This document shows, piece after piece, positions 465 through 19,912 of a stretch of DNA of 64,000 nucleotides; positions within the stretch are counted from its first letter, which is position 1, and each line of letters starts with the position of its first letter. This DNA is from Arthrobacter wenxiniae (GTDB taxonomy: Bacteria; Actinomycetota; Actinomycetes; Actinomycetales; Micrococcaceae). Both the position numbers and the translations under genes were made by a program. The notes beneath the pieces are model-generated. The model saw only the letters and a program-made list of their open reading frames with translations, searched no databases and was not told the origin of the DNA. The stretch is taken from assembly GCF_013376105.1 (NCBI RefSeq), contig NZ_JAAMFM010000013.1:1-64000 (forward strand). The letters run 5' to 3'.

Positions 465-1241
465 TCACCGATGCTTGAACTCCGCGGCGCGCTTTTCGGT
501 AAACGCCGCCATGCCTTCCTTCTGGTCCTCGGTGGCGAAGCAGGAGAAGATGAGGCGGCGTTCCAGGCGCACGCCTTCCGCCAGGGTCAGTTCGTAGGCG
601 GCGTTGACGGCATCCTTCGCGGTCATGGCGGCGGGCAGGGACATGGAGGCGACCACGGCGGCGGTCTCCAGCGCGTCGTCGAGCAGCGAGTCCACGGGGA
701 CCACGCGGGCCACCAGCCCGGCCTGCTCGGCCTCGGCCGCGCCCATGACCCGCCCGGTCAGGACCATTTCCATGGCCTTCGCCTTTCCAACGGCGCGGGT
801 CAGCCGTTGCGATCCGCCCATGCCGGGGATGACGCCAAGCTTGATTTCCGGCTGGCCGAACTTGGCGTTGTCCGCGGCGATGATGAAGTCGGCGATCATG
901 GCCAGCTCGCAGCCGCCGCCCAGGGCGTGCCCGGCGACGGCGGCAATCAGCGGGGTGCGGACGCGGGCCAGGGCGTCCCAGGCGGCGAACCAGTCCAGCT
1001 GGTACATCTCCACGGCCGACTTTTCGGCCATTTCCTTGATGTCGGCGCCGGCCGCAAACGCCCGGGAGGAGCCGGTGATGACGATTGCGCCCACGCCGGG
1101 ATCGGCGTCGAACGCCTGCGCGGCCGCGAGGATCTCCCGGCCCATGGCGTCGCTGAGGGCGTTGAGGGCCTCGGGCCGGTTGAGCGTGATCAGGCCAACC
1201 CGGCCACGTTGCTCGGCAAGGATCAGGGAGTATTGAGTCAT
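465..1241 (-). CDS. echA: Enoyl-CoA hydratase, ECHS1-like
   Basis: Crotonase-fold protein of 258 residues, the normal length for short-chain enoyl-CoA hydratase. The oxyanion-hole region [13 protein letters not shown] carries the first catalytic Glu (E112) and [12 protein letters not shown] the second (E132), so this is a true hydratase with both acid/base residues. It hydrates trans-2-enoyl-CoA to 3-hydroxyacyl-CoA in the cytoplasm. It is the last gene of a minus-strand run after isobutyryl-CoA dehydrogenase-like, 3-hydroxyisobutyryl-CoA hydrolase and 3-hydroxyisobutyrate dehydrogenase genes. The natural reading is therefore methacrylyl-CoA hydration in valine catabolism, though such enzymes are usually broad in specificity. 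Forty bases separate it from the upstream mmsB. Confidence 0.93.
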
Positions 1242-1281
1242 GTGGATGTAGTTCCGTTCAGTTCAGGGTCCAAGGCGGGGG

Positions 1282-2229
1282 TCAGGAGTCGGTGTCCAGG
1301 GTGGCCAGCCCCTCGGACGCCTGCCGGATGGTGTTGATGATGCCGGAGAAGTCCGTGCCGGCGCCGCCGTCAAGGGCGAAGTGGCGGTAGATTTCCTCCG
1401 CCGCCCGGCCCAGGGAGGCGGCCGTGCCGGTGGCGTTGAGGGCCTCCACAGCCAGGCCGAGGTCCTTGGCCATGAGCGCGCCGGCAAAGCCGGGCTGGTA
1501 GTCGCGGTTGGCGGGGCTGGCGGGCACGGGCCCGGGGACGGGACAGTTGGTGGTCAGCGCCCAGCACTGCCCGGAGGCGTTCGCGGCGACGTCAAACAGC
1601 GCCTGGTGCGTGAGCCCCAGCTTTTCGCCCAGCACAAAGGCCTCGCTGACGGCGATCATGGACACGCCCAGGATCATGTTGTTGCACACCTTGGCGGCCT
1701 GCCCGGCTCCGGCCCCGCCGCAGTGCACAATCCGCTTGCCCATGACCTCGAGGATCTCCGCCGCGTCGGCAAAGTCCTCCGCGGTTCCGCCCACCATGAA
1801 CGTCAGGGTGCCCGCCTCGGCGCCCATGACGCCGCCGGAGACCGGCGCGTCCAGGCTGTGGTGGCCCGCCGCCAGCGCGAGCTCGTGGGCGGTCCGGGCG
1901 TCCTCCACCGCAATGGTGGAGCACTCCAGGAACAGGGACCCCGGCTTGGCCGCGGCCAGCAGCCCGCCGCCGGGGCCCTCGCCCTCATACGCGGCAAAGA
2001 CGTGCTTGCCGGCGGGCAGCATGGTGATCACCACGTCGGCCCCGGACGCCGCCTCCGCGGAGGACGAAGCGACTGCCACGCCCGCGGCCTGTGCCGCCTC
2101 CAGCGCCTCGGGGACGACGTCGAATCCCGTCACCGGGTAGCCGGCCCTGACCAGGTTGGCCGCCATGGGCCCGCCCATGTGGCCCAGGCCGATAAAACCG
2201 ATTGTCCTGCGTGCTGCTTCGCTGCTCAT
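1282..2229 (-). CDS. mmsB: 3-hydroxyisobutyrate dehydrogenase
   Basis: Oxidises 3-hydroxyisobutyrate to methylmalonate semialdehyde with NAD in valine degradation. The 315-residue protein begins with the dinucleotide-binding motif GFIGLGHMGGPMAANL (11-26). It has the family's substrate-binding signature DAPVSGG (127-133) and the catalytic Lys in GQAAKVCNN (K180), followed by the helical C-terminal domain with KDLGLA. The start codon overlaps the stop of the upstream hydrolase gene by 4 bases (2226-2229), indicating translational coupling with the enzyme that makes its substrate. The next enzyme, methylmalonate semialdehyde dehydrogenase, is not in this window. Confidence 0.95.
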   Translation of the reverse strand: MSSEAARRTIGFIGLGHMGGPMAANLVRAGYPVTGFDVVPEALEAAQAAGVAVASSSAEAASGADVVITMLPAGKHVFAAYEGEGPGGGLLAAAKPGSLFLECSTIAVEDARTAHELALAAGHHSLDAPVSGGVMGAEAGTLTFMVGGTAEDFADAAEILEVMGKRIVHCGGAGAGQAAKVCNNMILGVSMIAVSEAFVLGEKLGLTHQALFDVAANASGQCWALTTNCPVPGPVPASPANRDYQPGFAGALMAKDLGLAVEALNATGTAASLGRAAEEIYRHFALDGGAGTDFSGIINTIRQASEGLATLDTDS

Positions 2230-3293
2230 GGCACCTTCACCGATCCGTTCCGTGCGTTTCCCAACCCGAGTTCGTCCGGGCCCAGGCTCTCAAATGTCCG
2301 CTTCACCACGTCCGCCGGCACGTCCGCCAGGGCGGCCGGCCGCCAGGCCGGGTTGCGGTCCTTGTCCACCAGCTGCGCCCTGATGCCCTCGGCAAAGTCG
2401 GGCCAGCGCAGGGCCCGCAGCGACACCCGCATGTCCTGGTCGAGCACCTCCTCCAGCGACCCGAGCACGCGCGCCCGGCGGAGGGCCTCCAGCGTGACCG
2501 TCACCGCGGTGGGCGACTTCGCCGCAATGGTGGCCGCCGCCTTCTCCGCCTCCGGGACGCCGGAGCCGGCCAGGCGCTTGACGATGGTGACGGCGTCGTC
2601 CGCGGAATAGGCGTCGTCAATCCAGGCCCGGGCCGCGAGGAGGGCGGATTCCGGCGGTTCCTGCCCGTGGCGTGCGACGGCGGAGCTGGCGTTGCGCCCG
2701 GCCAGCTCGGCTGCCAGCGTGGGCAGCAGCGAGGAATCGACAAAGTGGTCGGCCAGGCCCATGGCGACGGCGTCCGCGCCGCTGACCATGGTCCCGGTGA
2801 GCCCGGCGTGCGTGCCCAGTTCGCCCGGGGCGCGGGAGAGCAGGTACGTCCCGCCGACGTCCGGGACAAATCCGATCCCGGTCTCCGGCATGCCGATCCT
2901 CGAGCGTTCGGTGACCACGCGATGGGAGGCGTGCGCGGAAATGCCGACCCCGCCGCCCAGCACCACGCCGTCCATGAACGCGACAACGGGCTTCGGGTAG
3001 CGCTTGATACGGGCGTTGAGGTGGTATTCGTCGCGCCAGAATTGTTCGCTCTGGTTCCCGCCGGTGCGGGCGTCGTGGTAGATCGAGACGATGTCCCCGC
3101 CGGCGCACAGGCCCCGCTCACCGGCGCCCGAGATCAACACCGTTGCCACGCCGTCGTCGGTTTCCCAGGCATCCAGCGCGGCCGCCACGGCCTGGATCAT
3201 GCCGTGGTTGAGGGCGTTCATGGCCTGCGGCCGGTTCAGCACGACGTGGCCAAGATGCCCGGTGCGCTGCAGCAAAACGTCGGTGTCTGTCAT
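2226..3293 (-). CDS. 3-hydroxyisobutyryl-CoA hydrolase
   Basis: Crotonase-superfamily thioesterase (355 residues with the chosen start) that releases CoA from 3-hydroxyisobutyryl-CoA in the valine pathway. Family marks are LCAGGDI near residue 65, VLGGGVG in the oxyanion hole and PETGIGFVPDVGGTYLLS with the catalytic Glu and Asp. The C-terminal extension beyond a plain hydratase is typical of HIBCH. An in-frame ATG 15 bases upstream (3308) exists, but the ATG at 3293 is preceded by AGGAGG at good spacing and is preferred. The gene overlaps mmsB by 4 bases and follows the acyl-CoA dehydrogenase gene by 33 bases. Confidence 0.93.
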   Translation of the reverse strand: MTDTDVLLQRTGHLGHVVLNRPQAMNALNHGMIQAVAAALDAWETDDGVATVLISGAGERGLCAGGDIVSIYHDARTGGNQSEQFWRDEYHLNARIKRYPKPVVAFMDGVVLGGGVGISAHASHRVVTERSRIGMPETGIGFVPDVGGTYLLSRAPGELGTHAGLTGTMVSGADAVAMGLADHFVDSSLLPTLAAELAGRNASSAVARHGQEPPESALLAARAWIDDAYSADDAVTIVKRLAGSGVPEAEKAAATIAAKSPTAVTVTLEALRRARVLGSLEEVLDQDMRVSLRALRWPDFAEGIRAQLVDKDRNPAWRPAALADVPADVVKRTFESLGPDELGLGNARNGSVKVP

Positions 3294-3326
3294 CTGCGCC
3301 TCCTCCATGTTCCAGTCTCCAACACC

Positions 3327-4463
3327 CTAGTCTTCGACCGCCAGCCGGCCCACAATCAAGCGCATGATCTCATTGCTGCCCTCCAGGATCTGGTGGACGC
3401 GCAGGTCACGGACAATCTTTTCCAGCCCGTACTCGGAGAGGTAGCCGTAGCCCCCGTGGAGCTGCAGCGCCTGGTTGGCGACATGGAATCCGGCGTCGGT
3501 GGCGACCCGCTTGGCCATGGCGCACAGCTTCACCGTGTCCGGCGCGCCGGTCTCCAGGGCTTCCGCGGCGCGCAGGAGCATGGTGCGGGCGGTTTCCAGT
3601 TCGGTGTCCATGTCCGCCAGTTCAAACAGCAGGTGCTGCTGTTTGATGAGCGGGCCGCCAAACGCCTGGCGCTCCTTCAGGTAGGCAACCGACTTGGCGA
3701 AGGCGGCACGGCCGCCGCCCAGCGAGCAGGCGCCAATGTTGACGCGGCCGCCGTTGAGCCCCTTCATGGCGATGCCGAAGCCGTCGCCCTCCTCGCCGAG
3801 GCGGTTGGTCACCGGGACGCGGACGTCCTCTAACACCACCTGCCGGGTGGGCTGCGCACGCCAGCCCATCTTTTTTTCCTCCGCGCCGAAGGACAAACCG
3901 GGCGTGCCGTCCGGGACGACGATGGCGGTGATGCCGTGGCTGCCCGTGTCCTGGGTGCGGGCCATCACGATGTACCAGGCGGAGGAACCGGCACCGGAGA
4001 TGAATTGTTTTGTGCCATTGATGACGTAGTGGTCGCCGTCGCGCACGGCGCGGGTGGTGAGTGCGCCGGCGTCGGACCCCACGCCGGGTTCGGTCAGGCA
4101 GTAGCTGCCCAGCTCCGTCATGGCCGTCAGTCCGGGCAGCCAGGCGGCGCGCTGGGTGTCGTTGCCAAAGGCGTCAATCATCCATGCCACCATGTTGTGG
4201 ATGGAGATGTAGGCGGCGATGGACGGGTCCGCCGCTGCCAGTTCCTCAAAGATCAGCACCGCGTCGGTGCGGGTCATGCCGGAGCCGCCGTACTCCTCCC
4301 CCACGTAAATGCCGCCCATGCCAAGAGCCCCGGCCTCGGCCAGCACGTCCACGGGAAAGTGCTTCGCCTCGTCCCATGCGGCGGCGTGCGGGGCCAGCGC
4401 CGTCGCGGCGAAGTCACGCACCATCTCTACAATGGCGTGTTGGTCTTCGGTCAGGTTTTCCAT
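3327..4463 (-). CDS. Acyl-CoA dehydrogenase, isobutyryl-CoA dehydrogenase-like
   Basis: FAD-dependent acyl-CoA dehydrogenase of 378 residues passing electrons to ETF. It carries YCLTEPGVGSDA (FAD/substrate loop), GTKQFISGAG, the helix RQAFGGPLIKQQ and the C-terminal signature HQILEGSNEIMR, whose first Glu (E361) is the expected catalytic base in the usual position. Its place ahead of the hydrolase, mmsB and echA genes points to isobutyryl-CoA (ACAD8 role) as substrate. A 2-methyl branched or short-chain acyl-CoA would be the alternative. Both ETF genes lie about 1.1-2.9 kb upstream on the same strand. Confidence 0.88.
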   Translation of the reverse strand: MENLTEDQHAIVEMVRDFAATALAPHAAAWDEAKHFPVDVLAEAGALGMGGIYVGEEYGGSGMTRTDAVLIFEELAAADPSIAAYISIHNMVAWMIDAFGNDTQRAAWLPGLTAMTELGSYCLTEPGVGSDAGALTTRAVRDGDHYVINGTKQFISGAGSSAWYIVMARTQDTGSHGITAIVVPDGTPGLSFGAEEKKMGWRAQPTRQVVLEDVRVPVTNRLGEEGDGFGIAMKGLNGGRVNIGACSLGGGRAAFAKSVAYLKERQAFGGPLIKQQHLLFELADMDTELETARTMLLRAAEALETGAPDTVKLCAMAKRVATDAGFHVANQALQLHGGYGYLSEYGLEKIVRDLRVHQILEGSNEIMRLIVGRLAVED

Positions 4464-4544
4464 GGCGTCTCCTTTGACATTTCCGGGCAGTTGGGTGGGC
4501 CCGTCCTGGGTTCCTGCCCGGCGCGGGTGGGCCGGGCGGCCAGC

Positions 4545-5471
4545 TTACTTGGTGACCTTGCCGGTCAGTGAGGCGATGGGCCGCAGGAACAGGGGCCGGG
4601 CCGCGAACCACGCACCGGCGGTGAACAGCAGGGACAAGGCAAAGATGCCAAAGCCCCACCAGTTGACGGCGTCGCTGGCGCCGTACATGTGGTTGAGGTT
4701 CCGGAGGGCCCCCGTGGCCAGCACCAGTGTCACGTGGACAATGATGAACAGGACAAAGTAGACCATGACCGGAAAGTGCACCAGGCGGGCAAGTTCAACC
4801 GGGTAGAACCTGTTCAGCCGCTTGGCATTTTTGGGCCACGCGCCGGACATGCGGATGCCCGTGAGGATGGCCAGCGGCGCGGCAATGAACACCGTGGCGA
4901 AGTAGGTCAGCAGCTGCAGCGAGTTGTAGTTCACCCAGCCGTTCTCCGTGGGCCAGTTCAGGGACAGGTACTGCAGCCCGGCGGAAATGGCATTGGGGAA
5001 CACGTCCCAGGTGGTGGGCACGATCCGCAGCCACTGCCCCGTGGCGAAAATGACGATGATGAAGATGAGCCCGTTGAGCACCCACAGGGCGTCCAGCGTC
5101 AGGTGGAACCAGAGGTCCAGGCTGATCTTGACGGGCGCGTTCCTTGTCCTGATCAGGCCCTTGTTGTTGCGGATCCAGTGCGCCGGCGGCCGCTTGGCGG
5201 TGCGCACCTGCCAGCCGGAGCGGATGATCAGCACAATGAAGAACATGTTCAAAAAGTGCTGCCAGCCCAACCACGCCGGAAAGCCGACGGGCGTGGTGGC
5301 CGGGAGCTCAGACTGCCCCGGGTAGCTCACCATCCACGATTTCACGCCGTCAAGGCCCGTGAACCAGCGGGCGGCCAGCACCAGGACCAGCAGGCCAAGG
5401 ACAATGGCGCCGGCAACCAGGGCCGGTGTGGCCCACCTGCTCCGGGGCTGCTTCTTCGTGGGGGTCGTCAT
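4545..5471 (-). CDS. b-type cytochrome, cytochrome b561-like membrane protein
   Basis: A 308-residue integral membrane protein with about six hydrophobic segments (roughly 15-34, 66-86, 121-143, 186-208, 230-254, 272-292). Histidines H72, H123, H232 and H246 lie in or at the edges of these helices and could ligate two hemes b, as in the cytochrome b561/Ni-hydrogenase cytochrome b superfamily. The likely role is electron transfer between a partner dehydrogenase and the quinone pool. No periplasmic molybdopterin partner is present in the window. The setting between the ETF genes and acyl-CoA dehydrogenase suggests, without proving, a link to flavoprotein electron disposal. Spacers of 81 and 123 bases suggest its own promoter. 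Confidence 0.75.
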   Translation of the reverse strand: MTTPTKKQPRSRWATPALVAGAIVLGLLVLVLAARWFTGLDGVKSWMVSYPGQSELPATTPVGFPAWLGWQHFLNMFFIVLIIRSGWQVRTAKRPPAHWIRNNKGLIRTRNAPVKISLDLWFHLTLDALWVLNGLIFIIVIFATGQWLRIVPTTWDVFPNAISAGLQYLSLNWPTENGWVNYNSLQLLTYFATVFIAAPLAILTGIRMSGAWPKNAKRLNRFYPVELARLVHFPVMVYFVLFIIVHVTLVLATGALRNLNHMYGASDAVNWWGFGIFALSLLFTAGAWFAARPLFLRPIASLTGKVTK

Positions 5472-5594
5472 GGATCCTCATACCTCTTTCAAGAACGCTT
5501 CCGCTGCCACAGTAACCGCATTCCGGCGGTGGCTTCCAACGTCTATTTGTAACAGCTGCGCGGGCGTGGGCAGCCATCGGCCGTAACAGTCGTC

Positions 5595-6566
5595 TCAGCC
5601 CTGGTGCGAGCGGGCCGCCAGCGCCTCGATCAATTGCGGGACCACCGTGAAGACGTCGCCCACAATGCCGAAGTCGGCCACGTCAAAGATGGGGCTGTCC
5701 GCGTCCTTGTTGATGGCCACAATGGTCTTGGCCGTCTGCATGCCGGCCCGGTGCTGGATGGCGCCGGAGATCCCCAAGGCTATGTAAAGCTGGGGCGAGA
5801 CGCTTACGCCGGTCTGGCCCACCTGGGCCGTCTGCTCCACAAAGCCGGCGTCGACGGCGGCCCGCGAGGCCCCGACCGCCGCGCCCAGGGCGTCGGCGAG
5901 CTGCTCCACGAGGGCAAAATTTTCCCGGGAGCCGAGCCCGCGCCCGCCGGAGACCACCGTCTTGGCGCCGCGCAGCTCGGGGCGGCCCGCGGCGACCGGC
6001 GCGTCATTGACGGCGTCGATGCGGGCTCCGGTTGCTGGGCCCAGCTCCACCGTCGACATCTCCGGTGCTGCGGCGGGCGCGCCGCCCTCAATGGCGCCCT
6101 GGCGGATGGTGATGACGGGCAGTCCGCCCTCCACCGCCGACTCGACGTCGTAGCTGCCGCCAAACACCGAGTGTCCGGCCACGATCCGGTCCCCGTCGAC
6201 CCGGACAGCCACGGCGTCCACCAGCAGGGCCCCGCCGGTGCGCACAGCCAGGCGGGCGGCCACCTCGCGGCCGTCCACGGAGTTGGCGGCCAGCACGGCG
6301 GCGGGCGACAGCGCCTCCACCGCATGCTCCAGTGCGTCCACGGCCGGCGTGCCGAGCACCGATGCGGCGTCCGCACCCACGCCCTGGTACACCGCCGACG
6401 CGCCCAGCGCACCGAGGTGCGAGACGACGTCGTCCGCCAGAGCGGCGGGGGACGCCACCACGGCCACGGGGGTGCCGAGCGACGCGGCGGCCGCCAGCAG
6501 CCCCCGCGCCGATCCGGCCACGGCACCCTGGTGGGTCAATTCAATCAATGCAAGTATGTTCGCCAT
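5595..6566 (-). CDS. etfA: Electron transfer flavoprotein subunit alpha
   Basis: The 323-residue alpha subunit holds the FAD of the ETF heterodimer that collects electrons from acyl-CoA dehydrogenases. The C-terminal FAD domain is intact: [50 protein letters not shown] and [20 protein letters not shown] appear in the family order. It follows etfB by 12 bases and must be cotranscribed with it. In this neighbourhood it would serve the two acyl-CoA dehydrogenases at 3327-4463 and 16191-17348. An ETF:quinone oxidoreductase is not present in the window. Confidence 0.96.
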
Positions 6567-6578
6567 GCCCAGCCCTTC

Positions 6579-7346
6579 CTAGACCAAACGGTTTTCAACG
6601 AGGTAGTCGGCCAGCTGCGTGCCGGCATTGCCCTCGTCGACGATCTTTGTGCCGGCAGTGCGCGGCGGGCGCTCGCTGTGGGAGAGGATCACGGCGCGGG
6701 CCGGCGTGGCCTGCACGTCCAGCTCCGCGAGGGAGAGGGTGGCGACGGGCTTGCGCTTGGCCGTCAGGATGCCCTTGAAGTTGGGGAAGCGGGCCTCGGC
6801 GCTGCGCTCGGTGACGGTCACGACGGCGGGCAGCGCGGCGCTGACGGACAGCGTGCCGGATTCGCCCTGCCGCTCCCCGGACACCGTGCCGGGGACGATT
6901 TCCAGGGACGCGAGGGACCCGACGAGCGGCAGGCCCAGGTGCTCGGCCACCATGGCCGGCACCACGCCGCCGCGGCCGTCGGTCGACTCGTTGCCGGCCA
7001 CGATGACGTCCGCGCCGGCGTCCTTGAGGGCCGCGGCCAGCACGGCGGCCGTGCGCGCCGCGTCGGCGCCGGCCAGGGAACCGTCCAGGACGTGGATGCC
7101 GGAGTCGGCCCCCATGGACAGTGCCTTGCGGATGGCCTTGGACGCCTCCTCCGGCCCCATGGCCAGCACCACCACCTCGGTGGACTTGTCGCCGTCCTTC
7201 ACGCGGAGGGCAACCTCCAGGGCTCGCTCGTTGATCTCGTCAACGATGTTGTCCCCGGCGTCGCGGTTGAGCCAGCCCGTCTCCGGGTCCAGCGTGCGCT
7301 CGTCGGCCGTGTCAGGCACCTGCTTGATCAACACCACGATCTTCAT
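6579..7346 (-). CDS. etfB: Electron transfer flavoprotein subunit beta
   Basis: A 255-residue beta subunit binding AMP. It begins MKIVVLIKQVPDT, continues with the NDEIN-like patch IVDEINERALE and has the loop AGNESTDGRGGVVPAMVAEHLGLP that matches the ETF-beta signature region. A GAAGGGG ribosome site precedes the ATG. The gene is the first of the minus-strand series running to echA and is divergent from a MarR-family gene. The shared upstream region contains repeated ACTAGG-type words that look like an operator, so etfBA is probably under MarR control (inference). Confidence 0.95.
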   Translation of the reverse strand: MKIVVLIKQVPDTADERTLDPETGWLNRDAGDNIVDEINERALEVALRVKDGDKSTEVVVLAMGPEEASKAIRKALSMGADSGIHVLDGSLAGADAARTAAVLAAALKDAGADVIVAGNESTDGRGGVVPAMVAEHLGLPLVGSLASLEIVPGTVSGERQGESGTLSVSAALPAVVTVTERSAEARFPNFKGILTAKRKPVATLSLAELDVQATPARAVILSHSERPPRTAGTKIVDEGNAGTQLADYLVENRLV

Positions 7347-7383
7347 GGACAGCCCCTTCGCGTAGAAAGTGTTCTGCGGCCAG

Positions 7384-7425
7384 ATTACTAGGAACTGCTA
7401 GCATTTACTAGGTACCCCGAGTAAA
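7384..7425. promoter_or_regulatory. Putative MarR operator between etfB and marR
   Basis: TTACTAGG occurs twice in direct orientation (7385-7392 and 7405-7412), exactly 20 bp apart, i.e. two helical turns. CTAG-GAACTG-CTAG lies across the first copy, and TTTACT/AGTAAA arms (7404-7409 and 7420-7425) flank the second. This AT-rich patch stands out in a GC-rich intergenic region and is placed to control both divergent genes. Confidence 0.5.
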
Positions 7426-7482
7426 TTGTTTGGGAAGGGCGGTTGTACGCCCGCCACCGCCCGCCGCGAGGAAGGACACGCC

Positions 7483-8019
7483 ATGGCCCCCGGAGCACCG
7501 CTGCCCATGGACCCCATTGCGGAAGCCAGGCGGCAGTGGATAGCCCACGGCTGGGCCGACGCGGCGGACGGCATGGCCGCGTATTCCTCCGTGATGCGCG
7601 CCCACCAGCTCATGTACAGCCGCGTGGACGCCGTCCTCAAGCCGCTGGGCCTCTCCTATGCGAGGCTGGAGCTGTTGCGGCTGCTGTCCTTCACGCGCGA
7701 CGGCGCCCTGCCGATGGCCAGCGCCAGCGTCCGCCTGCAGGTCCATCCCACGAGCATCACCAATGTCGTGGACCGGCTGGAGCGGGACGGCTTTGTCCGG
7801 CGCGAGGCCCACCCGACGGACGGCCGGGCCACGCTGGTGGTGCTGACCGGCCCGGGCCGCGCCCTGGTGGAGAAGGCCACCGAGGTGCTCAATGAACAGG
7901 TGTTTGAACGGCCCGGCATCCCCGTGGGGGAGCTGCGCAGCATGACCGGCATCCTGGCCCGCTTCCGCCGCGCCGCCGGAGACTTCACCGACCCCGCGCC
8001 GCGCCCCGACCCGCTGTAG
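7483..8019 (+). CDS. MarR-family transcriptional regulator
   Basis: A 178-residue winged-helix protein. YARLELLRLLSF, a recognition helix region in HPTSITNVVDRLERDGFVRREAHPTDGRATLVVLT and a C-terminal dimerisation helix give the complete MarR layout. In-frame translation could begin at 7426, but the ATG at 7483 has a GAGGAAGGA ribosome site about 7 bases upstream and is preferred. Divergent from etfB and flanked by the operator-like repeats, it probably represses or senses an acyl-CoA or aromatic ligand for the etf genes; the ligand is unknown. Its 3' end overlaps the convergent metallo-hydrolase gene by 35 bases. Confidence 0.9.
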   Translation: MAPGAPLPMDPIAEARRQWIAHGWADAADGMAAYSSVMRAHQLMYSRVDAVLKPLGLSYARLELLRLLSFTRDGALPMASASVRLQVHPTSITNVVDRLERDGFVRREAHPTDGRATLVVLTGPGRALVEKATEVLNEQVFERPGIPVGELRSMTGILARFRRAAGDFTDPAPRPDPL

Positions 8020-11863: not shown

Positions 11864-12751
11864 TCACCTTCCCTGGAACTCGGCCGGCCGGTGCTCCCCC
11901 AGCGCCGTGACGGCCTCCACCAGGTCCGCGCTGTGCAGGAACGCGGAGTTCCAGAGGGCCACGTGGCGCAGCCCGCGGGCGATCCGTTCCTCCCGGTCGT
12001 CGTTCAGCACTGCCTTCGTGCCGGCCACTGCCAGCGGCGAGTTGGCGGCCATCTCCGCGGCCATCCCCAGCGCGGCGGCCAGGAGCGCTTCCGGGTCGGG
12101 GAGGACGGCGTTGACGAGGCCGATCCTTTCCGCGCGTTCCGCGCCGATGTCCTTGCCGGTCAATGCCAGCTCTCTCAGGTGGCCCTCGGCGATGATGCCG
12201 CGCAGCCGCTGCAGGCTGCCGACGTCGGCCACGATGGCCAGCCTGGCCTCCCTGATACTGAACTGCGCGCCGGCGGAGGCCAGCCGGACGTCGGCGGCGC
12301 TGATGAGGTCCACGCCGCCGCCGATGCACCAGCCGGAGACCGCCGCGATGACGGGCTTGCGGCACGCGGCCACGGCCGTGATGCCGTCCTGGAGCCGGCC
12401 GATCAACCGCAGCAGCTCGCCGCGGGCCGCGGCCGTGGGGCCGCTTTCGGCACCGAGCCGCCCCAGCCAGGGGCCCAGGACTTCCTGCACGTCGAGCCCC
12501 ACGCTGAAGTGCTTCCCGGTGCCGGTGAGGACCACTGCCCGGACGGAGGCGTCGGCGTCGAGCCCGCCGATCAGCCGGGGCAGCTCGTCCCAGAAGTCCA
12601 GGCCCATCATGTTGCCGCGCCCGGGGCCGGCCAGGCGGACCACGGCCACTCCGGGTGCGCCCGTCCTGTCCACCGTGAACGCCTTCCAGCGGTTCTCCCG
12701 CCCCGCGGCCGCCGCCCGGGCGTCCGCCGGGGATTCCGCCGGGGTCGCCAT
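11864..12751 (-). CDS. Delta3,5-delta2,4-dienoyl-CoA isomerase-like crotonase
   Basis: A 295-residue crotonase-superfamily protein. GGGVDLISAADVRLAS, SIREARLAIVADVGSLQRL and the residues D148, E168 and D176 match the three catalytic acids of eukaryotic ECH1 (Asp176, Glu196, Asp204), and ADVGxLQRL is its hallmark. It should shift double bases of 3,5-dienoyl-CoAs formed from odd-position unsaturated fatty acids into the beta-oxidation path. The reading frame is open further upstream, but the ATG at 12749-12751 overlaps the TGA of the multifunctional-enzyme gene by one base and fits the family length. Confidence 0.83.
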   Translation of the reverse strand: MATPAESPADARAAAAGRENRWKAFTVDRTGAPGVAVVRLAGPGRGNMMGLDFWDELPRLIGGLDADASVRAVVLTGTGKHFSVGLDVQEVLGPWLGRLGAESGPTAAARGELLRLIGRLQDGITAVAACRKPVIAAVSGWCIGGGVDLISAADVRLASAGAQFSIREARLAIVADVGSLQRLRGIIAEGHLRELALTGKDIGAERAERIGLVNAVLPDPEALLAAALGMAAEMAANSPLAVAGTKAVLNDDREERIARGLRHVALWNSAFLHSADLVEAVTALGEHRPAEFQGR

Positions 12752-14919
12752 CAGTACTGCTCCCCGCGTCCGGCCTTGGCCACGAGGGATTCCGGAGGCA
12801 GGAAGCGCTCCCCGTACCGGGCGGCCAGTTCGCGGGCCCTGGCCACAAAGCCCGGCAGGCCGCCGGCGTACCCGTTCATGAACTGCACCACGCCGCCCGT
12901 CCAGCCGGGGAAGCCAATGCCCAGGATCGAGCCGACGTTGGCGTCCTCCACGCTGCGCAGCACACCCTCGTCCAGGCACTTGACGGTTTCCAGGGATTCG
13001 GCGAAGAGCATGCGCTCCTTCATGTCCTCGAAGGGGACCTGCGCCGTGCCGCCCCAGGTTTCGGCCAGGCCTTCCCAGAGCCCGGTGCGGTGGCCGTCGG
13101 CGTAGTTGTAGAACCCGGCGCCGCCCAGCCTTCCCGTGCGCTGGAACTCCCCGACCATCCGGTCCAGGAGGTCGTAGGCGGGGTGGTGCTGGTACGTCTG
13201 GGGACCGCCGTCGCGCGCCAGCCCCGCCTTGGTCTCCTGCTGGATCTTGGACATCAGGGTCAGGTTCAGCTCGTCGGCCAGCTGCAGCGGAGGGGCCGGG
13301 TAGCCGGCCTGGGCGCCGGCCTGCTCCACCGACGCGGCGGAAATGCCCTCGCCCACCATGGCGATGGCCTCGTTCAGGAAGGTGCCGATGACGCGGCTGG
13401 TGAAGAAGCCGCGGGAATCGTTGACCACAATGGGCGTCTTGCGGAGCTGCCTGGCTATGTCGAAGGCCCGGGCCAGGGTTTCATCCGAGGTGTTCTTCCC
13501 GGCGATGATTTCCAGCAGCGGCATCCTCTCCACGGGGGAGAAGAAGTGCAGGCCGATGAAGTCCGGCTGGTTCCGCACGCCCTCGGCCAGCTGGCTGATG
13601 GGCAGCGAGGAGGTGTTGGAGGCCAGGACGGCGCCGCCGGCCACCAGGCCCTCGATCTCCTGGAAGGCCTTGTGCTTCACCTCCACATTTTCAAACACGG
13701 CCTCGATCACCAGGTCCGCCCCGGCCACGTCCGCGGCGCTCCCTGTGGGGGTGATCCTGGCCAGCAGCGCCTCCGCGTCCGCCTGCGTGGACCGGCCGCG
13801 GGCCACGGCCTTTTCGGTCAGGCCGCGCGAGTAGTCCTTGCCGTGCCGGGCCGCCTCGAGGGAAACGTCCTTGAGCACCACGTCCAGGCCGGCACGGGCG
13901 CACACGTACGCGATGCCGGCGCCCATCATGCCGGCGCCGAGCACTGCCACTTTTTTGGCCGTGTGCCTGTCATGGCCGGCCGGGCGGCTGCCGCCGGCCT
14001 TGATGTGCGCCATGTCAAGGAAGAACGCCTTGATCATGTTGGTGGAGACCTGCCCGGCAACCACTTCGACGAAGTACCGGGACTCAATTTCCAGGGCGGT
14101 GTCGATGTCCACCTGGCTGCCTTCGACGGCGGCCGCCAGGATGGCCCGGGGCGCCGGGTAGTTCGCGCCCTTCAGGTCCTCGCGCAGCTTCGCCGGAAAG
14201 GACGGCAGGACAGCGGCGAGCGCCGGCGATGCGGGCGTGCCTCCGGGGATCCGGTAGCCGGGCACGTCATAGGGCTGGACGGCGTCCGGGTGGGCGGCGA
14301 TCCAGGCCTTGGCGGCGGGGACCAGTTCCGCCGCGGTATCCACCACTTCGTCCACGAGCCCGATGTCCCGTGCCTCGCGCGGCTTGTACCGGCGGCCCTG
14401 CAGCAGGACCTTGGTGAGGGCGTCGGCCAGGCCCATGAGGCGCACGGTCCGCACGATGCCGCCGCCGCCGGGCAGCAGGCCCAGCGTGACCTCGGGCAGC
14501 CCGATCACGGAGCCCGGGGTGTCCGCGGCAATCCGGTGGTGGGCGGCCAGGGCAATTTCGAGCCCGCCGCCGAGGGCCGCGCCGTTGAGGGCCGCCACCA
14601 CGGGCCTGCCCAGCGTTTCCAATGCGCGCAGCGGCGCCTTGATGGCCTGGCCAAGCTCAAAAACCCGCTGCGCGTCGCCGGGCCCGGCCTTGACGAGGTC
14701 GTTGAGGTCCCCGCCGGCGAAGAACGTCTTCTTGGCGGAGGTCAGGATGACGCCGGTGAGCGTGTCCTTCTCCGCCACCAGCCGCGCCACGGCGGCCTGC
14801 ATGGACGCCGCGTAGGCCTCATTCATGATGTTCGCCGACTGGTCCGGATCATCCATGGTCAAGATGACGACGCCGTCGGCGTCCCGGTCCCAGCGGATGG
14901 TGCTCAAGGTGTGCGTCAT
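12751..14919 (-). CDS. fadJ: Fatty acid oxidation multifunctional enzyme (FadB/FadJ type)
   Basis: A 722-residue fusion of an N-terminal enoyl-CoA hydratase (GGGLEIALAAHHRI with E121; LPEVTLGLLPGGGG with E143) and a C-terminal 3-hydroxyacyl-CoA dehydrogenase. The NAD-binding motif VAVLGAGMMGAGIAY is at about 324-338, HFFSPVERMPLLEI carries the catalytic His, and two 3HCDH C-terminal domains follow. It performs hydration and NAD-dependent oxidation of beta-oxidation. It partners the thiolase encoded 4 bases upstream. Length is normal for the family. The hydratase half diverges in its N-terminal loop (PDQSANIMNE), as is common in actinobacterial FadB proteins. Confidence 0.94.
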   Translation of the reverse strand: MTHTLSTIRWDRDADGVVILTMDDPDQSANIMNEAYAASMQAAVARLVAEKDTLTGVILTSAKKTFFAGGDLNDLVKAGPGDAQRVFELGQAIKAPLRALETLGRPVVAALNGAALGGGLEIALAAHHRIAADTPGSVIGLPEVTLGLLPGGGGIVRTVRLMGLADALTKVLLQGRRYKPREARDIGLVDEVVDTAAELVPAAKAWIAAHPDAVQPYDVPGYRIPGGTPASPALAAVLPSFPAKLREDLKGANYPAPRAILAAAVEGSQVDIDTALEIESRYFVEVVAGQVSTNMIKAFFLDMAHIKAGGSRPAGHDRHTAKKVAVLGAGMMGAGIAYVCARAGLDVVLKDVSLEAARHGKDYSRGLTEKAVARGRSTQADAEALLARITPTGSAADVAGADLVIEAVFENVEVKHKAFQEIEGLVAGGAVLASNTSSLPISQLAEGVRNQPDFIGLHFFSPVERMPLLEIIAGKNTSDETLARAFDIARQLRKTPIVVNDSRGFFTSRVIGTFLNEAIAMVGEGISAASVEQAGAQAGYPAPPLQLADELNLTLMSKIQQETKAGLARDGGPQTYQHHPAYDLLDRMVGEFQRTGRLGGAGFYNYADGHRTGLWEGLAETWGGTAQVPFEDMKERMLFAESLETVKCLDEGVLRSVEDANVGSILGIGFPGWTGGVVQFMNGYAGGLPGFVARARELAARYGERFLPPESLVAKAGRGEQY

Positions 14920-14923
14920 TTCG

Positions 14924-16147
<1,224 letters not shown>

Positions 16148-16190
16148 AGCTGGCCAAGTCCTTTCAGTGGTTCGTTGCTAGGTCCGGGGC

Positions 16191-17348
16191 TTACAGGGAG
16201 CGGGCGATGAGCTCCTTCATGACCTCGTTGGCGCCCGCCAGGACGCGCAGCACCCGGTTGTCCGCGTACATGCCGGCGATCGGGTATTCCAGGCAGTAGC
16301 CGTAGCCGCCGAAGAGCTGCTGGCAGCGGTCCACCACCTCCCCGGTCCTGTCTGTGAGCCAGTACTTGGCCATGGACGCCGTGGCCGCATCCAGCCCGCC
16401 ATTGACGTGCCGGGTGATGCAGTCGTCCAGGAAGACGCGGTTGACGCGCGTGATGGTGGCGCACTCGGCCAGTTCGAAGCGGGTGTTTTGCAGTTCGAAG
16501 AGCGGCTTGCCAAACGCCTCGCGTGTCTTGGTGTAGTCCAGTGCGGCGCGGACCGCGGCTTCGCTGATGGATTGTGCCAGGATGGCGGTGATGAGCCGCT
16601 CCTGGGACAGCTGGTTCATCAGCTGGAAGAAGCCCTGTCCTTCCGCGCCGCCCAGGACGTTTGCGGCGGGGATGCGCAGGTCCTCGAAGAAAAGTTCCGA
16701 GGTGTCCTGCCCCTTCAGCCCGATCTTGTCCAGGTTGCGCCCGCGGGTGAACCCGGGGGTGCCCGCGCCCACCTCCGCCACCAGCAGGGAGATGCCCCTG
16801 GCACCCTGCGTGGTGTCGGTCTTGGCGGCGATGACCACCAGGTCGCACAGCTGGCCGTTGGAGATGAAGGTCTTCGAGCCGTTCACCACGTAGTGCTCCC
16901 CCTCGCGGCGGGCCCGGGTGGTGATGGCCTGGAGGTCGGAGCCCGCGCCGGGCTCGGTCATGGCGATGGCGCCCACCCATTCGCCGCTGCACAGCTTCGG
17001 GAGCCAGCGCAGCTTCTGCTCCTCCCTGGCGTAGGCCAGCAGGTAGTGGGCCACGATCCCTTCGCTGACGGCAAAGCCCAGGCTGCCGGCACCCGCCGCG
17101 GTTTGTTCCTGCAGCAGCAGCGCCAGGTTGGCAAAGGTGCCGCCTCCGCCGCCGTACTCCTCCGGGATGCTCATGCCGCACAGTCCCAGCTCCCCGGCCC
17201 TGCGGTACAACGCACGGTCGGGGTACCCCTGCTGGCGGAATTGTTCCTCGCGCGGGGCCACCTCCCTGGCAAAGAAGTCCCTCAGCAGGTGGGCGACGTC
17301 CGCCAGGTCGTCGTCGATCCAGCTGGGGGAAACCGTGGTGGTTGACAT
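16191..17348 (-). CDS. LCAD-type acyl-CoA dehydrogenase
   Basis: A 385-residue flavoprotein dehydrogenase. It has AMTEPGAGSD, NGSKTFISNGQ and the C-terminal VLAGANEVMKELIARSL. In the last motif the usual catalytic Glu of the YEGT/LEGS position is replaced by Ala. The acid is instead in QLSQERLITA (E250), the arrangement of mammalian long-chain acyl-CoA dehydrogenase (PQERLLIA; ...GGTNEIMKELIA). Mammalian LCAD accepts 2-methyl branched long chains, which fits the racemase in this operon. It is the first gene of the minus-strand operon ending at 7985, and its promoter region carries the 19-bp palindrome at 17368-17386. Confidence 0.88.
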   Translation of the reverse strand: MSTTTVSPSWIDDDLADVAHLLRDFFAREVAPREEQFRQQGYPDRALYRRAGELGLCGMSIPEEYGGGGGTFANLALLLQEQTAAGAGSLGFAVSEGIVAHYLLAYAREEQKLRWLPKLCSGEWVGAIAMTEPGAGSDLQAITTRARREGEHYVVNGSKTFISNGQLCDLVVIAAKTDTTQGARGISLLVAEVGAGTPGFTRGRNLDKIGLKGQDTSELFFEDLRIPAANVLGGAEGQGFFQLMNQLSQERLITAILAQSISEAAVRAALDYTKTREAFGKPLFELQNTRFELAECATITRVNRVFLDDCITRHVNGGLDAATASMAKYWLTDRTGEVVDRCQQLFGGYGYCLEYPIAGMYADNRVLRVLAGANEVMKELIARSL

Positions 17349-17367
17349 ACTGCCAATGCTGCAGAAT

Positions 17368-17386
17368 TATTGACAGCGTGTCAATA
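17368..17386. promoter_or_regulatory. Perfect 19-bp palindrome, probable TetR operator
   Basis: TATTGACAGCGTGTCAATA has perfect 8-bp arms around a GCG centre. It is located between the divergent LCAD-type operon (start 17348) and the isomerase-tetR pair (start 17419). Each arm contains TTGACA, the consensus -35 hexamer, in opposite orientation, so binding would cover -35 elements of both directions. The nearby TetR gene (18267-18959) is the obvious ligand-responsive partner. No second perfect copy was noticed in the window. Confidence 0.7.
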
Positions 17387-17418
17387 GCCTGCCGGCGTTT
17401 CGAGCGAAAGCGGTTCCC

Positions 17419-18270
17419 ATGACCAGCTACACAGCCATCGGCTCCACGGTGTCGGAGCAGATCGCCACCGTCACGCTCAACCGCCCCGAAGCACGCAACG
17501 GCTACACGCCCGCCATGGCCAACGAGCTTGAGCACGCCTTCAAGGCGGCCGACGCCGACCCCTCGGTCCGCGTGGTGGTGTTCACCTGTGCGGGCCCGGA
17601 CTTCTCCGTCGGGGCTGACCTCAGCGGCGGCGCCTTCAACCTCCGGCCCGGCGACGGCGACGGGGACGATTGGCAGGAGCCGGCCGGCCGTTGTTCCAAG
17701 ACAATCTTCGGCCTGGACAAGCCCGTCATCGCCGCCCTGCGCGGGGTGGCCGTGGGCGGCGGCCTCACCATCACGCTCTCCTGTGACTTCCGCCTGGCGT
17801 CCACCGATTCCCGCTTCTCCTTCCCGTTCAGCCGTCGCGGCATCTTTCCCGAGGGCGCCTCCACCTGGTACCTGCCGCGGCTGGTCGGCATGACCCGTGC
17901 CGCCGACTGGATGCTGACCGGGCGCCTCTTTGGCGCCCAGGAAGCGCTCGACGCCGGACTGGTCACCTCCGTGCACCAGCCCGAGGCCGTGCTGGGTGCT
18001 GCGTACGCCCTGGCCCGGGACCTCATCTCCCACACGTCCCCCGTCTCGACGGCCGTGATCCGGCAGATGCTCAACCGCCTCAGCGCCCTGGACTCCCCCT
18101 ACCCCGCGCACGCCGTGGACTCACGCCTGATCTCAGGCCTGGAGGGCAGCGCCGACGCCCGGGAGGGGGTTGCGTCATTCCTGGAAAAACGGCCGCCGTC
18201 CTTCCCCTGGACCGTGCCGGCGGACATTCCGGCCTGGTTGCCGTGGCGCGTCCCGGGAGGCGCGCCGTGA
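17419..18270 (+). CDS. Crotonase-family enoyl-CoA isomerase-like protein
   Basis: A 283-residue crotonase-fold protein. In GGGLTITLSCDF the first hydratase Glu is replaced by Thr (T117). In SFPFSRRGIFPEGASTWYLPRLVG the second hydratase Glu position is Phe (F137), while a Glu lies in FPEG (E145). That PEG(x)S motif is seen in delta3-delta2-enoyl-CoA isomerases (ECI2/yeast Eci1), whose single catalytic Glu sits there. Isomerisation is therefore more likely than hydration (inference). It would complement the dienoyl-CoA isomerase for unsaturated chains. It is divergent from the beta-oxidation operon and translationally coupled (GTGA overlap) to the TetR gene. Confidence 0.78.
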   Translation: MTSYTAIGSTVSEQIATVTLNRPEARNGYTPAMANELEHAFKAADADPSVRVVVFTCAGPDFSVGADLSGGAFNLRPGDGDGDDWQEPAGRCSKTIFGLDKPVIAALRGVAVGGGLTITLSCDFRLASTDSRFSFPFSRRGIFPEGASTWYLPRLVGMTRAADWMLTGRLFGAQEALDAGLVTSVHQPEAVLGAAYALARDLISHTSPVSTAVIRQMLNRLSALDSPYPAHAVDSRLISGLEGSADAREGVASFLEKRPPSFPWTVPADIPAWLPWRVPGGAP

Positions 18271-18959
18271 CGGCGCCCGGGGAGCCCCCCCTCAAGGCGG
18301 GGCGGACCGCCCACGGCGGGTCCGGCGTCGACCATTCCGGCATAGACCATTCCGGCCGCGAGGCCGGGCAGCGGCGCCAGCGGCTCACCCCGGACCAGCG
18401 CCGCGGGCAGATCTTCGACTGTGCCCAGCGGCTGTTCGCCCAGCGGCCCTACGAGGACGTCTCCGCGACGGACATCGCCGCGGCGGCGGGCGTGGCGCGC
18501 GGGCTGGTCAACCACTATTTCGGCAACAAGCGCGAACTGTACCTGGAGGTGGTTCGGCTGAACTCCACCGTGCCCGAGGTGGCCGTGGCCGCGCTGCCCG
18601 AGGGAACGCTGCAGGAGCGGATCGACGCCTCCGTGACGTGGTTCCTGGACACGCTGGCGGCCACCGGGGGGACGTGGCTTGGGCTCGGCTCAGGCGGGAT
18701 GGGCCGGGACCCGGACGTGGAACGCATCCTCATCGAGGCGGAGAACCTCTCGGTGGAGCGGCTCATGGAGGCCATGGGGCTGGCCGGGCGCGCCACCGGG
18801 CAGGAGGAGGTGCGGGCCATGATGCGGGTCTACGTCCAGCTGGCGCGCAGCGGGGCCCGCGAGTGGCTGCTGCGGAAAACCCTCAGCCGGGCGCAGGTCC
18901 ATTCACTGCTGGCGGGCACGCTGCTGGTGGTGGTCCGCGACGCCGCCGCGGCGATCTGA
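18267..18959 (+). CDS. TetR-family regulator of the beta-oxidation operon
   Basis: A 230-residue regulator. The TetR helix-turn-helix lies in RRGQIFDCAQRLFAQRPYEDVSATDIAAAAGVARGLVNHYFGNKRELY (shown here only as its extent, about residues 48-95), and the C-terminal half is a ligand domain. The frame is open upstream, but the GTG at 18267 follows GGGAGG by 5 bases and overlaps the upstream stop, so it is preferred. Cotranscribed with the isomerase-like gene and facing the LCAD-type operon across a perfect palindrome, it most likely represses both units and is released by an acyl-CoA (inference from FadR-type TetR proteins). Confidence 0.88.
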   Translation: MTAPGEPPLKAGRTAHGGSGVDHSGIDHSGREAGQRRQRLTPDQRRGQIFDCAQRLFAQRPYEDVSATDIAAAAGVARGLVNHYFGNKRELYLEVVRLNSTVPEVAVAALPEGTLQERIDASVTWFLDTLAATGGTWLGLGSGGMGRDPDVERILIEAENLSVERLMEAMGLAGRATGQEEVRAMMRVYVQLARSGAREWLLRKTLSRAQVHSLLAGTLLVVVRDAAAAI

Positions 18960-19054
18960 CGCCGCCCCCGCGTGTCCGTGGAGGACAAGTTGGACCGAAT
19001 TCGCCGATTTTCAGGGTTTTTCGTCGACGACCGGCAACACAGATCCGGGCGGGG

Positions 19055-19912
19055 CTACGGGTCCACGTATAGGTCCGGCATCAGCTCCGCTGAAGGATCC
19101 ACGGCATACCGCGCGAAGTCGCTGGTGCCGCGGGACCGCAGGAATTCCTCGTCAATGATGACCTGCCCGGTCAGTTCGCGGCTGGGGGTGGTGAGGATGG
19201 CGTGGGCGGCGTCGGCCATGATCTCCGGGGTGCGTGAGCGGCGCACCATCTCCGCGCCGCCCAGGATGTTCGCCACCGCGGCCGTGGCGATGGTGGTGCG
19301 CGGCCACAGTGCGTTCGACGCCACGCCCTGCTGCGCGAACTCGGCGGCGAAGGACAGCGCGCACAGCGTCATCCCGTACTTGGCCAGCGTGTAGGCGGGG
19401 TGGGCCCCGAGCCACTTGGGGTCCAGGTTCAGCGGCGGGCTGAGGGTCAGGATGTGCGGGTTTTCGGCCGTGAGCAGGTGCGGCAGCGCGGCCCGGGTGA
19501 GCATGTACGTGCCCCGCGTGTTGACGTCCTGCATGAGGTCGTACCGCCGGGGCGCCAGTTCCAGGGTCCCGGCCACGGAGAGCACGCTGGCGTTGTTGAG
19601 GACGACGTCGATGCCCCCGAACGCCGTCACCGCCCCCTCCACGGCGCGCGAGATGGTCTCGTCGCTGCGGATGTCGCCGACCACCGCCAGGACCCGCCCG
19701 CCGGCGGCCTCAATGGCCGCCGCCGCCGTGTGGATGGTGCCTTCCAGGCGCGGATCCGGCTTGTCAGTCTTGGCGACGAGCACCACGTTGGCGCCGTCGC
19801 GCGCGGCCCGCAGGGCAATGGCCAGGCCGATTCCGCGGGAACCGCCGGACATCACGATGGTCCGCCCGGCCAGGCTGCCGGACCGGTCGGTGGACGATTC
19901 CTTGGCTGGCAT
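19055..19912 (-). CDS. Short-chain dehydrogenase, HSDL2-like
   Basis: A 285-residue SDR with the cofactor loop SGGSRGIG (22-29), the VGD adenine-site Asp and NNAS (106-109). The catalytic residues are S158 (LTLSPPLN), Y174 and K178 (YTLAK). AKTDKPDPRLEGTIHTAA, MQDVNTRGTY, SPPLNLDP and NALWPRT closely follow mammalian hydroxysteroid dehydrogenase-like 2, a fatty-acid/steroid-associated SDR. The C-terminal SCP2 lipid-binding domain of the animal protein is missing here. The substrate is unknown. It stands alone between the TetR gene (convergent) and the second tRNA-fMet, and belongs functionally with the lipid genes to its left (inference). Confidence 0.85.
   Translation of the reverse strand: MPAKESSTDRSGSLAGRTIVMSGGSRGIGLAIALRAARDGANVVLVAKTDKPDPRLEGTIHTAAAAIEAAGGRVLAVVGDIRSDETISRAVEGAVTAFGGIDVVLNNASVLSVAGTLELAPRRYDLMQDVNTRGTYMLTRAALPHLLTAENPHILTLSPPLNLDPKWLGAHPAYTLAKYGMTLCALSFAAEFAQQGVASNALWPRTTIATAAVANILGGAEMVRRSRTPEIMADAAHAILTTPSRELTGQVIIDEEFLRSRGTSDFARYAVDPSAELMPDLYVDP

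What the first reader, a model, noticed from the sequence alone, without database searches (positions are those of the whole stretch)
465..19912. Candidate complete route for methyl-branched (isoprenoid-type) fatty acids down to the valine pathway
Seen: acyl-CoA ligase, alpha-methylacyl-CoA racemase (H128/D157), LCAD-type dehydrogenase, FadB-type enzyme, thiolase, ECH1-type dienoyl-CoA isomerase, ECI-like isomerase, HSDL2-like SDR, ETF, and next to them isobutyryl-CoA dehydrogenase-like, hydratase, HIBCH and HIBADH genes. Known: beta-oxidation of 2-methyl branched isoprenoid acids such as pristanic acid needs a racemase, yields propionyl- and acetyl-CoA and ends in isobutyryl-CoA; mammalian LCAD accepts 2-methyl chains. 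Inference: both halves form one catabolic module, a bacterial counterpart of the peroxisomal/mitochondrial branched-chain pathway encoded at one locus. Methylmalonate semialdehyde dehydrogenase is missing from the window.
Basis: partly seen in the sequence, partly recalled or inferred. Interest (0 to 1): 0.75.

Follow-up and report, generated by a model that had tools for sequence, protein, structure and literature searches.

The report
Two neighbouring branched-acid breakdown operons
This stretch holds two separately controlled sets of fat-breakdown genes, one with optional enzymes for methyl-branched fats and one for the valine pathway; they could work in sequence, but relatives keep the two sets together even when the branched-fat enzymes are gone, so their closeness does not prove one dedicated pathway.

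Summary
The racemase is AMACR-type by sequence: best solved match M. tuberculosis MCR, with H128, D129, D157 and E242 invariant in 13 aligned sequences. One acyl-CoA dehydrogenase is LCAD-type; another is the genome's only close isobutyryl-CoA-dehydrogenase match.

The 'one module' inference is only partly supported. There are two operons, each with its own regulator gene (TetR, MarR) and its own conserved palindromic site; neither site occurs at the other operon. Both halves lie together in 22 of 23 same-genus genomes, yet the racemase is in only 9. Outside the genus, 7 of 40 family genomes with the isobutyryl-CoA gene have the thiolase, and 1 has it linked.

The racemase tracks the in-locus LCAD-type gene instead: both in 8 genomes, neither in 12, one alone in 3 (p 0.0007 ignoring ancestry; on the tree 4:0, not significant). 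LCAD-type genes also adjoin racemases in distant bacteria.

Best reading: a general beta-oxidation operon with an optional racemase plus LCAD adaptor for 2-methyl acids, beside a valine operon able to consume isobutyryl-CoA. Enzyme types are supported by sequence; substrates, flux and regulation are inferred. Methylmalonate-semialdehyde dehydrogenase is encoded elsewhere in the genome.

The parts
465..1241 (-). enoyl-CoA hydratase (PRK05862), valine half
   Evidence: 415 bits vs cut-off 396; in 22 of 22 genus loci
1282..2229 (-). 3-hydroxyisobutyrate dehydrogenase (HIBADH)
   Evidence: TIGR01692 392 bits vs cut-off 291.6; 22 of 22 loci
2226..3308 (-). 3-hydroxyisobutyryl-CoA hydrolase (HIBCH)
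   Evidence: NF004127 444 bits vs cut-off 274; 22 of 22 loci
3327..4463 (-). isobutyryl-CoA dehydrogenase-type ACAD (IBD)
   Evidence: best solved match human ACAD8, 449 vs 306 bits for the next; next match in own genome only 36%
4545..5471 (-). cytochrome b561-like membrane protein
   Evidence: PF01292 weak, 28.7 vs 30.1 bits; 22 of 22 loci
5595..6566 (-). ETF alpha
   Evidence: under cut-offs; 16 of 22 loci
6579..7346 (-). ETF beta
   Evidence: under cut-offs; 16 of 22 loci
7404..7425 (.). palindrome TTTACTNGGNNNNCCNAGTAAA, proposed MarR operator of the ETF/valine operon
   Evidence: at most 2 mismatches in 19 of 19 loci with the MarR gene and in 0 of 3 without; only exact copy in own genome
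7483..8019 (+). MarR-family regulator, divergent from ETF
   Evidence: PF01047; 19 of 22 loci
7985..9061 (-). MBL-fold hydrolase, last gene of the first operon
   Evidence: PF00753; 19 of 22 loci
9058..10176 (-). alpha-methylacyl-CoA racemase (AMACR)
   Evidence: M. tuberculosis MCR 434 bits; H128 D129 D157 E242 invariant; 9 of 23 genus genomes; dN/dS 0.12-0.20
10186..11736 (-). acyl-CoA ligase
   Evidence: PRK06187 499.7 vs cut-off 476; 15 of 22 loci
11864..12754 (-). ECH1-type dienoyl-CoA isomerase (start codon not settled)
   Evidence: PRK06142 359.5 vs cut-off 308; EchA21 and ECH1 structures; 21 of 22 loci
12751..14919 (-). FadB/FadJ-type multifunctional enzyme
   Evidence: full-length FadJ/FadB matches under cut-off; 22 of 22 loci
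14924..16147 (-). thiolase (PRK08242)
   Evidence: 698.6 vs cut-off 514; 22 of 22 loci
16191..17348 (-). LCAD-type acyl-CoA dehydrogenase
   Evidence: human LCAD 334 bits, 2pg0 326, next 236; orthologue in 10 of 23 genus genomes
17341..17385 (.). two palindromic sites TTGACANNNTGTCAA, 28 bases apart, proposed TetR operator of the first operon
   Evidence: exact site in 20 of 22 loci, one mismatch in 1, none in 1; only exact copy in own genome
17419..18270 (+). crotonase-family protein (PRK08260-like), divergent
   Evidence: 318.2 vs cut-off 320; 19 of 22 loci
18243..18959 (+). TetR-family regulator
   Evidence: PF00440; 20 of 22 loci
19055..19912 (-). HSDL2-like short-chain dehydrogenase (PRK08278)
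   Evidence: 420.8 vs cut-off 250; seen in 15 of 22 fetched stretches, some of which end before it

Best explanation
Two operons with separate local regulators lie side by side. Operon 1 (LCAD, thiolase, FadB, ECH1, ligase, AMACR, MBL; divergent crotonase and TetR) activates long-chain acids and runs beta-oxidation; ECH1 deals with double bonds. AMACR turns 2R-methylacyl-CoA into 2S-methylacyl-CoA and the LCAD-type enzyme dehydrogenates it, so this pair is an optional adaptor that widens a general operon to 2-methyl-branched (isoprenoid-type) acids. Operon 2 (ETF, b561-like protein, IBD, HIBCH, HIBADH, hydratase; MarR) breaks down isobutyryl-CoA from valine and would also take isobutyryl-CoA left by iso-branched or isoprenoid chains. 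Supported by sequence: gene identities, the conserved pair of regulator sites, patchiness of AMACR and LCAD, constancy of the rest. Inferred: substrates, stereochemistry, electron flow, actual regulation and metabolic coupling.
For: Gene families and catalytic residues. Both halves in one locus in 22 of 22 genus genomes that have them, AMACR in 9 of 23. AMACR and in-locus LCAD: both 8, AMACR only 1, LCAD only 2, neither 12; Fisher p 0.0007. They stand at opposite ends of the operon with thiolase, FadB and ECH1 between them kept, so joint absence is not one deletion. LCAD-type gene within 400 bases on the same strand of AMACR in 4 of 80 other AMACR loci, from Actinomycetota and Pseudomonadota, against 0 of 80 for IBD; three such or nearby ACADs have only LCAD-type proteins as top solved matches. 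LCAD-thiolase-FadB-AMACR in a row in an order relative (L049). TetR site in 21 of 22 loci; MarR site in 19 of 19 loci with MarR and 0 of 3 without. AMACR dN/dS 0.12-0.20.
Against: On the locus tree the AMACR/LCAD association gives about 4 pairs the same way and 0 to 1 against, sign test median p 0.125, not significant. A second LCAD-type gene (54-56%) lies elsewhere in 9 of the 14 genomes without AMACR and in 0 of 9 with it, so in-locus LCAD loss may be replacement, not loss of function. Most of the 80 AMACR loci (69) have no LCAD-type match of 44% or more within the fetched flanks. G012 has AMACR without LCAD; G005 and G014 the reverse. One locus (G015) keeps the TetR site without the TetR gene in the fetched stretch. 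No substrate or expression data.
Confidence: 0.6

Rival explanations
1. One reading: one dedicated isoprenoid-acid module in which both halves are selected together because pristanate-like acids end in isobutyryl-CoA.
For: Both halves linked in 22 of 22 genus genomes that have them and both missing in G018; the chemistry is sound (established knowledge); one distant locus (L137, Leucobacter MAG) has AMACR directly before HIBCH.
Against: Linkage holds in 13 genomes without AMACR; separate regulators and sites; 1 of 40 IBD-bearing family genomes outside the genus linked to the thiolase; IBD near AMACR in 0 of 80 other loci.
Confidence: 0.2
2. Linkage reflects breakdown of ordinary even iso-branched membrane fatty acids (iso-C14, iso-C16), which end in isobutyryl-CoA without any racemase; AMACR is a later or optional addition.
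For: Explains why beta-oxidation and isobutyryl-CoA genes stay together without AMACR or LCAD. That such bacteria make iso and anteiso acids is recalled, not tested.
Against: No test of substrates; anteiso acids, recalled as the major class, would end in 2-methylbutyryl-CoA instead.
Confidence: 0.3
3. Plain neighbourhood: two unrelated catabolic operons kept together by shared ancestry, perhaps also by sharing ETF.
For: Each has its own regulator and site; linkage is almost absent outside the genus.
Against: Order is kept in 22 of 22 loci despite much gain and loss of accessory genes, which suggests some selection; ETF sharing cannot be the reason where locus ETF is gone (6 of 22).
Confidence: 0.35
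4. AMACR acts on a valine-side alpha-methyl intermediate (3-hydroxyisobutyryl-CoA) rather than on long 2-methyl chains.
For: 3-hydroxyisobutyryl-CoA is itself a 2-methylacyl-CoA with a stereocentre (established chemistry); AMACR-HIBCH neighbours in L137.
Against: AMACR is in the LCAD/FadB operon here, not in the HIBCH operon; HIBCH is present in 22 of 22 loci while AMACR is in 9.
Confidence: 0.05

Closest known systems
Bacterial mcr (alpha-methylacyl-CoA racemase) in isoprenoid breakdown: Gordonia mcr mutants lose growth on polyisoprene and methyl-branched isoprenoids (Arenskotter 2008, as cited in passages of PMC8538451); Mycobacterium sp. P101 pristane work of 2004 (recalled)
   Same: Same enzyme family and proposed role in 2-methyl-branched beta-oxidation
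   Different: Here it sits in one operon with an LCAD-type dehydrogenase, thiolase and FadB, next to a valine operon
Mycobacterial far-fadA-fadB region (gene names Rv0855, Rv0859, Rv0860 recalled)
   Same: AMACR with 74-77% identical thiolase and 60-68% identical FadB nearby, as in several Mycobacterium and Mycolicibacterium loci; Far is the second kind of solved AMACR match
   Different: There the genes are 2-9 kb apart, with no valine half and no LCAD-type match in most of those loci
Mammalian peroxisomal/mitochondrial pristanic acid oxidation (AMACR, LCAD; established knowledge)
   Same: Racemase plus LCAD-type dehydrogenase; isobutyryl-CoA as end product
   Different: Bacterial operons; function not tested here
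Bacterial valine catabolic operons (IBD, HIBCH, HIBADH, hydratase)
   Same: Same four enzymes, over family cut-offs or best matches
   Different: Preceded by ETF and a b561-like membrane protein and controlled by a MarR gene; MMSDH elsewhere

Membership tests
alpha-methylacyl-CoA racemase (AMACR/MCR) | Closer to AMACR than to class III CoA-transferases | tested here: met
   MCR 434 bits and Far 402 bits; best CoA-transferase 113 bits
alpha-methylacyl-CoA racemase (AMACR/MCR) | Catalytic His and Asp (MCR H126, D156; numbering recalled) | tested here: met
   H128 and D157 aligned, invariant in 13 sequences
alpha-methylacyl-CoA racemase (AMACR/MCR) | Racemase activity on 2-methylacyl-CoA | not testable with these tools
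   needs enzyme assay
LCAD-type acyl-CoA dehydrogenase | Best match LCAD rather than other ACADs | tested here: met
   human LCAD 334 bits, 2pg0 326, next 236; groups apart from IBD in the tree
LCAD-type acyl-CoA dehydrogenase | Acts on 2-methyl-branched acyl-CoA | not testable with these tools
   needs enzyme assay
isobutyryl-CoA dehydrogenase (ACAD8) | Best match ACAD8, clear of other ACADs | tested here: met
   449 vs 306 bits
complete valine catabolic operon | IBD, hydratase, HIBCH, HIBADH and MMSDH together | tested here: not met
   four of five in the locus; MMSDH elsewhere in the genome at C1 and C34
single co-regulated isoprenoid module | Both halves share a regulator or operator | tested here: not met
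   different local sites for TetR and MarR; neither found at the other operon in 22 loci at up to 2 mismatches. Sequence evidence only, not binding
single co-regulated isoprenoid module | Linkage of the halves depends on AMACR | tested here: not met
   13 genus genomes keep the linkage without AMACR
isoprenoid-acid catabolic locus | Growth on or induction by pristanic acid or phytol | not testable with these tools
   needs culture

The most novel reading that the evidence does not exclude
AMACR and the LCAD-type dehydrogenase form a portable two-enzyme adaptor that converts a straight-chain beta-oxidation operon into one for 2-methyl-branched acids. It is lost or kept as a pair within this genus although four genes lie between the two, and pairs up again in distant phyla; in this genus the adaptor, the general beta-oxidation enzymes and the isobutyryl-CoA exit happen to lie in one locus, giving a natural with/without comparison among close relatives.
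Probability: 0.4. Interest if true: 0.5.

Novelty: new member of a known kind. Interest (0 to 1): 0.33.

Why it matters
If the adaptor reading holds, close relatives that differ in AMACR and LCAD but share the rest of the locus are a ready natural experiment on how bacteria gain the ability to degrade 2-methyl-branched (isoprenoid, petroleum-type) acids, and gene presence could predict that ability. The comparison also warns that gene closeness alone would have over-called a single pathway.

Tried and rejected
Rejected: that the racemase is a class III CoA-transferase (AMACR matches exceed the best transferase by more than 280 bits). Rejected: a TetR site at the valine operon (none with up to 2 mismatches in 22 loci). 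The looser own-genome TetR pattern at up to 2 mismatches is background (41 forward matches against 33 for the reversed control), so no regulon was claimed from it; the one-mismatch site at 26424 was not pursued. The MarR pattern at up to 3 mismatches is also background apart from the exact site (4 against 4 for the control).

The tree test of AMACR with LCAD did not reach significance; AMACR with ligase and AMACR with ETF gave similar, weaker results. Literature: searches found no paper in the held open library; some searches gave listings; passages only were seen of PMC8538451 and PMC12472514 (a Dietzia pristane transcriptome: its main text has no mention of racemase, valine or isobutyryl; supplements not seen). 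The library lacks most subscription journals, so this is no claim of absence from print. Structure prediction was not used.
Full report
Observation. One search translates the frames; searches identify them. Minus-strand order from 17348 down: LCAD-type dehydrogenase, thiolase, FadB-type enzyme, ECH1-type isomerase, ligase, AMACR, MBL hydrolase; then ETF beta, ETF alpha, b561-like membrane protein, isobutyryl-CoA dehydrogenase, HIBCH, HIBADH, enoyl-CoA hydratase. On the plus strand are a MarR gene (7483-8019), which breaks the minus-strand run between MBL and ETF, and a crotonase plus TetR (17419-18959). An HSDL2-like SDR (19055-19912) lies beyond. The crotonase is not confirmed as ECI-like.

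Identity of key enzymes. AMACR: MCR of M. tuberculosis 434 bits, best CoA-transferase 113 bits; H128, D129, D157 and E242 invariant across 13 sequences, of the 18 close or moderate relatives found plus the window only 13 being aligned. LCAD type: human LCAD 334 bits and the bacterial 2pg0 326, next 236. IBD: human ACAD8 449 bits, next 306; the next match in the own genome is only 36% identical. MMSDH has two copies over the cut-off elsewhere in the genome, so the valine route can be completed. The genome has another, 33% similar FadB-like gene, so this FadB is not its only one.

Conservation in the genus. Of 23 genomes (own included), 22 have FadB, thiolase and the IBD-HIBCH-HIBADH-hydratase genes in one stretch of at most 20 kb; G018 has neither half. 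G011 has a diverged FadB (55-59%). AMACR orthologues (75% or more) occur in 9 of 23, in-locus LCAD orthologues (82% or more) in 10 of 23, ligase in 15 of 22 loci, ETF in 16 of 22, MBL in 19 of 22. So the halves stay linked in 13 genomes that lack AMACR.

AMACR goes with LCAD. Both 8, AMACR only 1 (G012), LCAD only 2 (G005, G014), neither 12; Fisher p 0.0007, ignoring ancestry. The genes are separated by thiolase, FadB, ECH1 and mostly a ligase; thiolase and FadB are kept throughout and ECH1 in 21 of 22, so joint absence is not one deletion. On a tree of seven locus proteins AMACR changes 6 times and LCAD 7 times; of 6 independent pairs LCAD goes the same way in 4 on average, the other way in 0.2; sign test median p 0.125, not significant. 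Against a simple adaptor story, a second LCAD-type gene (54-56%) elsewhere in the genome is found in 9 of 14 genomes without AMACR and 0 of 9 with it (p 0.0026).

Beyond the genus. Of 148 family genomes searched, 47 have IBD (E at most 1e-120), 40 of them outside the genus. Of these 40, 7 have the thiolase (E at most 1e-100) and 1 (G050) has it on the same contig about 8 kb away; in G189, a single-contig genome, they are 850 kb apart; in the other 5 they are on different contigs, and in G148 the IBD gene is so near a contig end that linkage cannot be judged. Only IBD and thiolase, not the whole halves, were tested there. The named genome scan kept the 80 best AMACR loci of at least 591. Among these 80, LCAD-type genes (44% or more, 70% coverage) lie in 11, and within 400 bases on the same strand in 4 (Speluncibacter, Acrocarpospora, Marinobacter, a Burkholderiales MAG); thiolase in 11 and FadB in 8; IBD in 0; HIBCH in 1. 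In one of 9 further loci from the same family or order (L049), LCAD, thiolase, FadB and AMACR stand in a row. A Rhodospirillaceae MAG (L127) has ligase, LCAD-type, FadB and AMACR in a row, its LCAD falling just under the 44% threshold.

Regulation, from sequence only. A perfect palindrome ATTGACAgcgTGTCAAT lies between LCAD and the divergent crotonase/TetR, with a weaker copy 28 bases away. The exact core is in 20 of 22 loci, with one mismatch in one and absent in one (G011, which lacks TetR); G015 keeps the site though no TetR was found in its fetched stretch. A different palindrome lies between ETF and MarR: present with at most 2 mismatches in 19 of 19 loci with MarR and 0 of 3 without, and where ETF is gone it stands before the b561-like gene. 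Neither motif is found at the other operon in these loci, and each has its only exact copy in the own genome here. That TetR and MarR bind these sites is inferred from position and co-occurrence.

Interpretation. The evidence favours two neighbouring, separately controlled operons. Operon 1 is a general beta-oxidation operon that in some species carries AMACR plus an LCAD-type dehydrogenase, the pair expected for 2-methyl-branched acids. Operon 2 is the genome's isobutyryl-CoA (valine) route. Isoprenoid acids and ordinary even iso fatty acids both end in isobutyryl-CoA (established chemistry), so operon 2 can act downstream of operon 1, but that coupling is untested. Genus-wide linkage needs another reason than AMACR; iso-fatty acids or shared ancestry are the candidates. 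That AMACR serves isoprenoid breakdown in bacteria is already known (passage in PMC8538451), so this is a new member of a known kind with an informative comparative pattern.

Noticed in passing
window 4545-5471 (-): A b561-like membrane protein between ETF and IBD is kept in 22 of 22 genus loci, also where locus ETF is lost. A 68% relative sits beside ETF alpha/beta in another cluster of G007 (L160) and a 61% relative directly follows ETF alpha on a Cnuibacter plasmid (L164). The own genome has no Fer4_ETF_QO match (PF05187). It may be an ETF-to-quinone electron carrier; against this, more distant relatives on plasmids lie in genes annotated as molybdopterin oxidoreductases, and two other Arthrobacter plasmid relatives lie apart from ETF.
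   Followed up: partly
window 44-120 (-) and 20011-20085 (-): Two tRNA-Met (CAT) genes, identical over the 75 aligned bases, flank the whole locus as direct repeats; two copies are also seen in the stretches L043, L056 and L068. Recombination between them could delete the locus, which might explain its absence in G018; not tested.
   Followed up: partly
L137:541-10502: Leucobacter MAG with TRAP transporter, acyl-CoA dehydrogenase, ligase, hydratase, 4HBT thioesterase, AMACR and HIBCH, the last six reading the same way: a different AMACR-HIBCH link.
   Followed up: partly
L151-L157: A second LCAD-type gene (54-56%) in other catabolic clusters, found only in genus members without AMACR (9 of 14 against 0 of 9).
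   Followed up: partly
window 7985-9061 (-): MBL-fold hydrolase overlapping the AMACR gene by 4 bases and kept in 19 of 22 loci, mostly without AMACR; role in beta-oxidation unknown.
   Followed up: no
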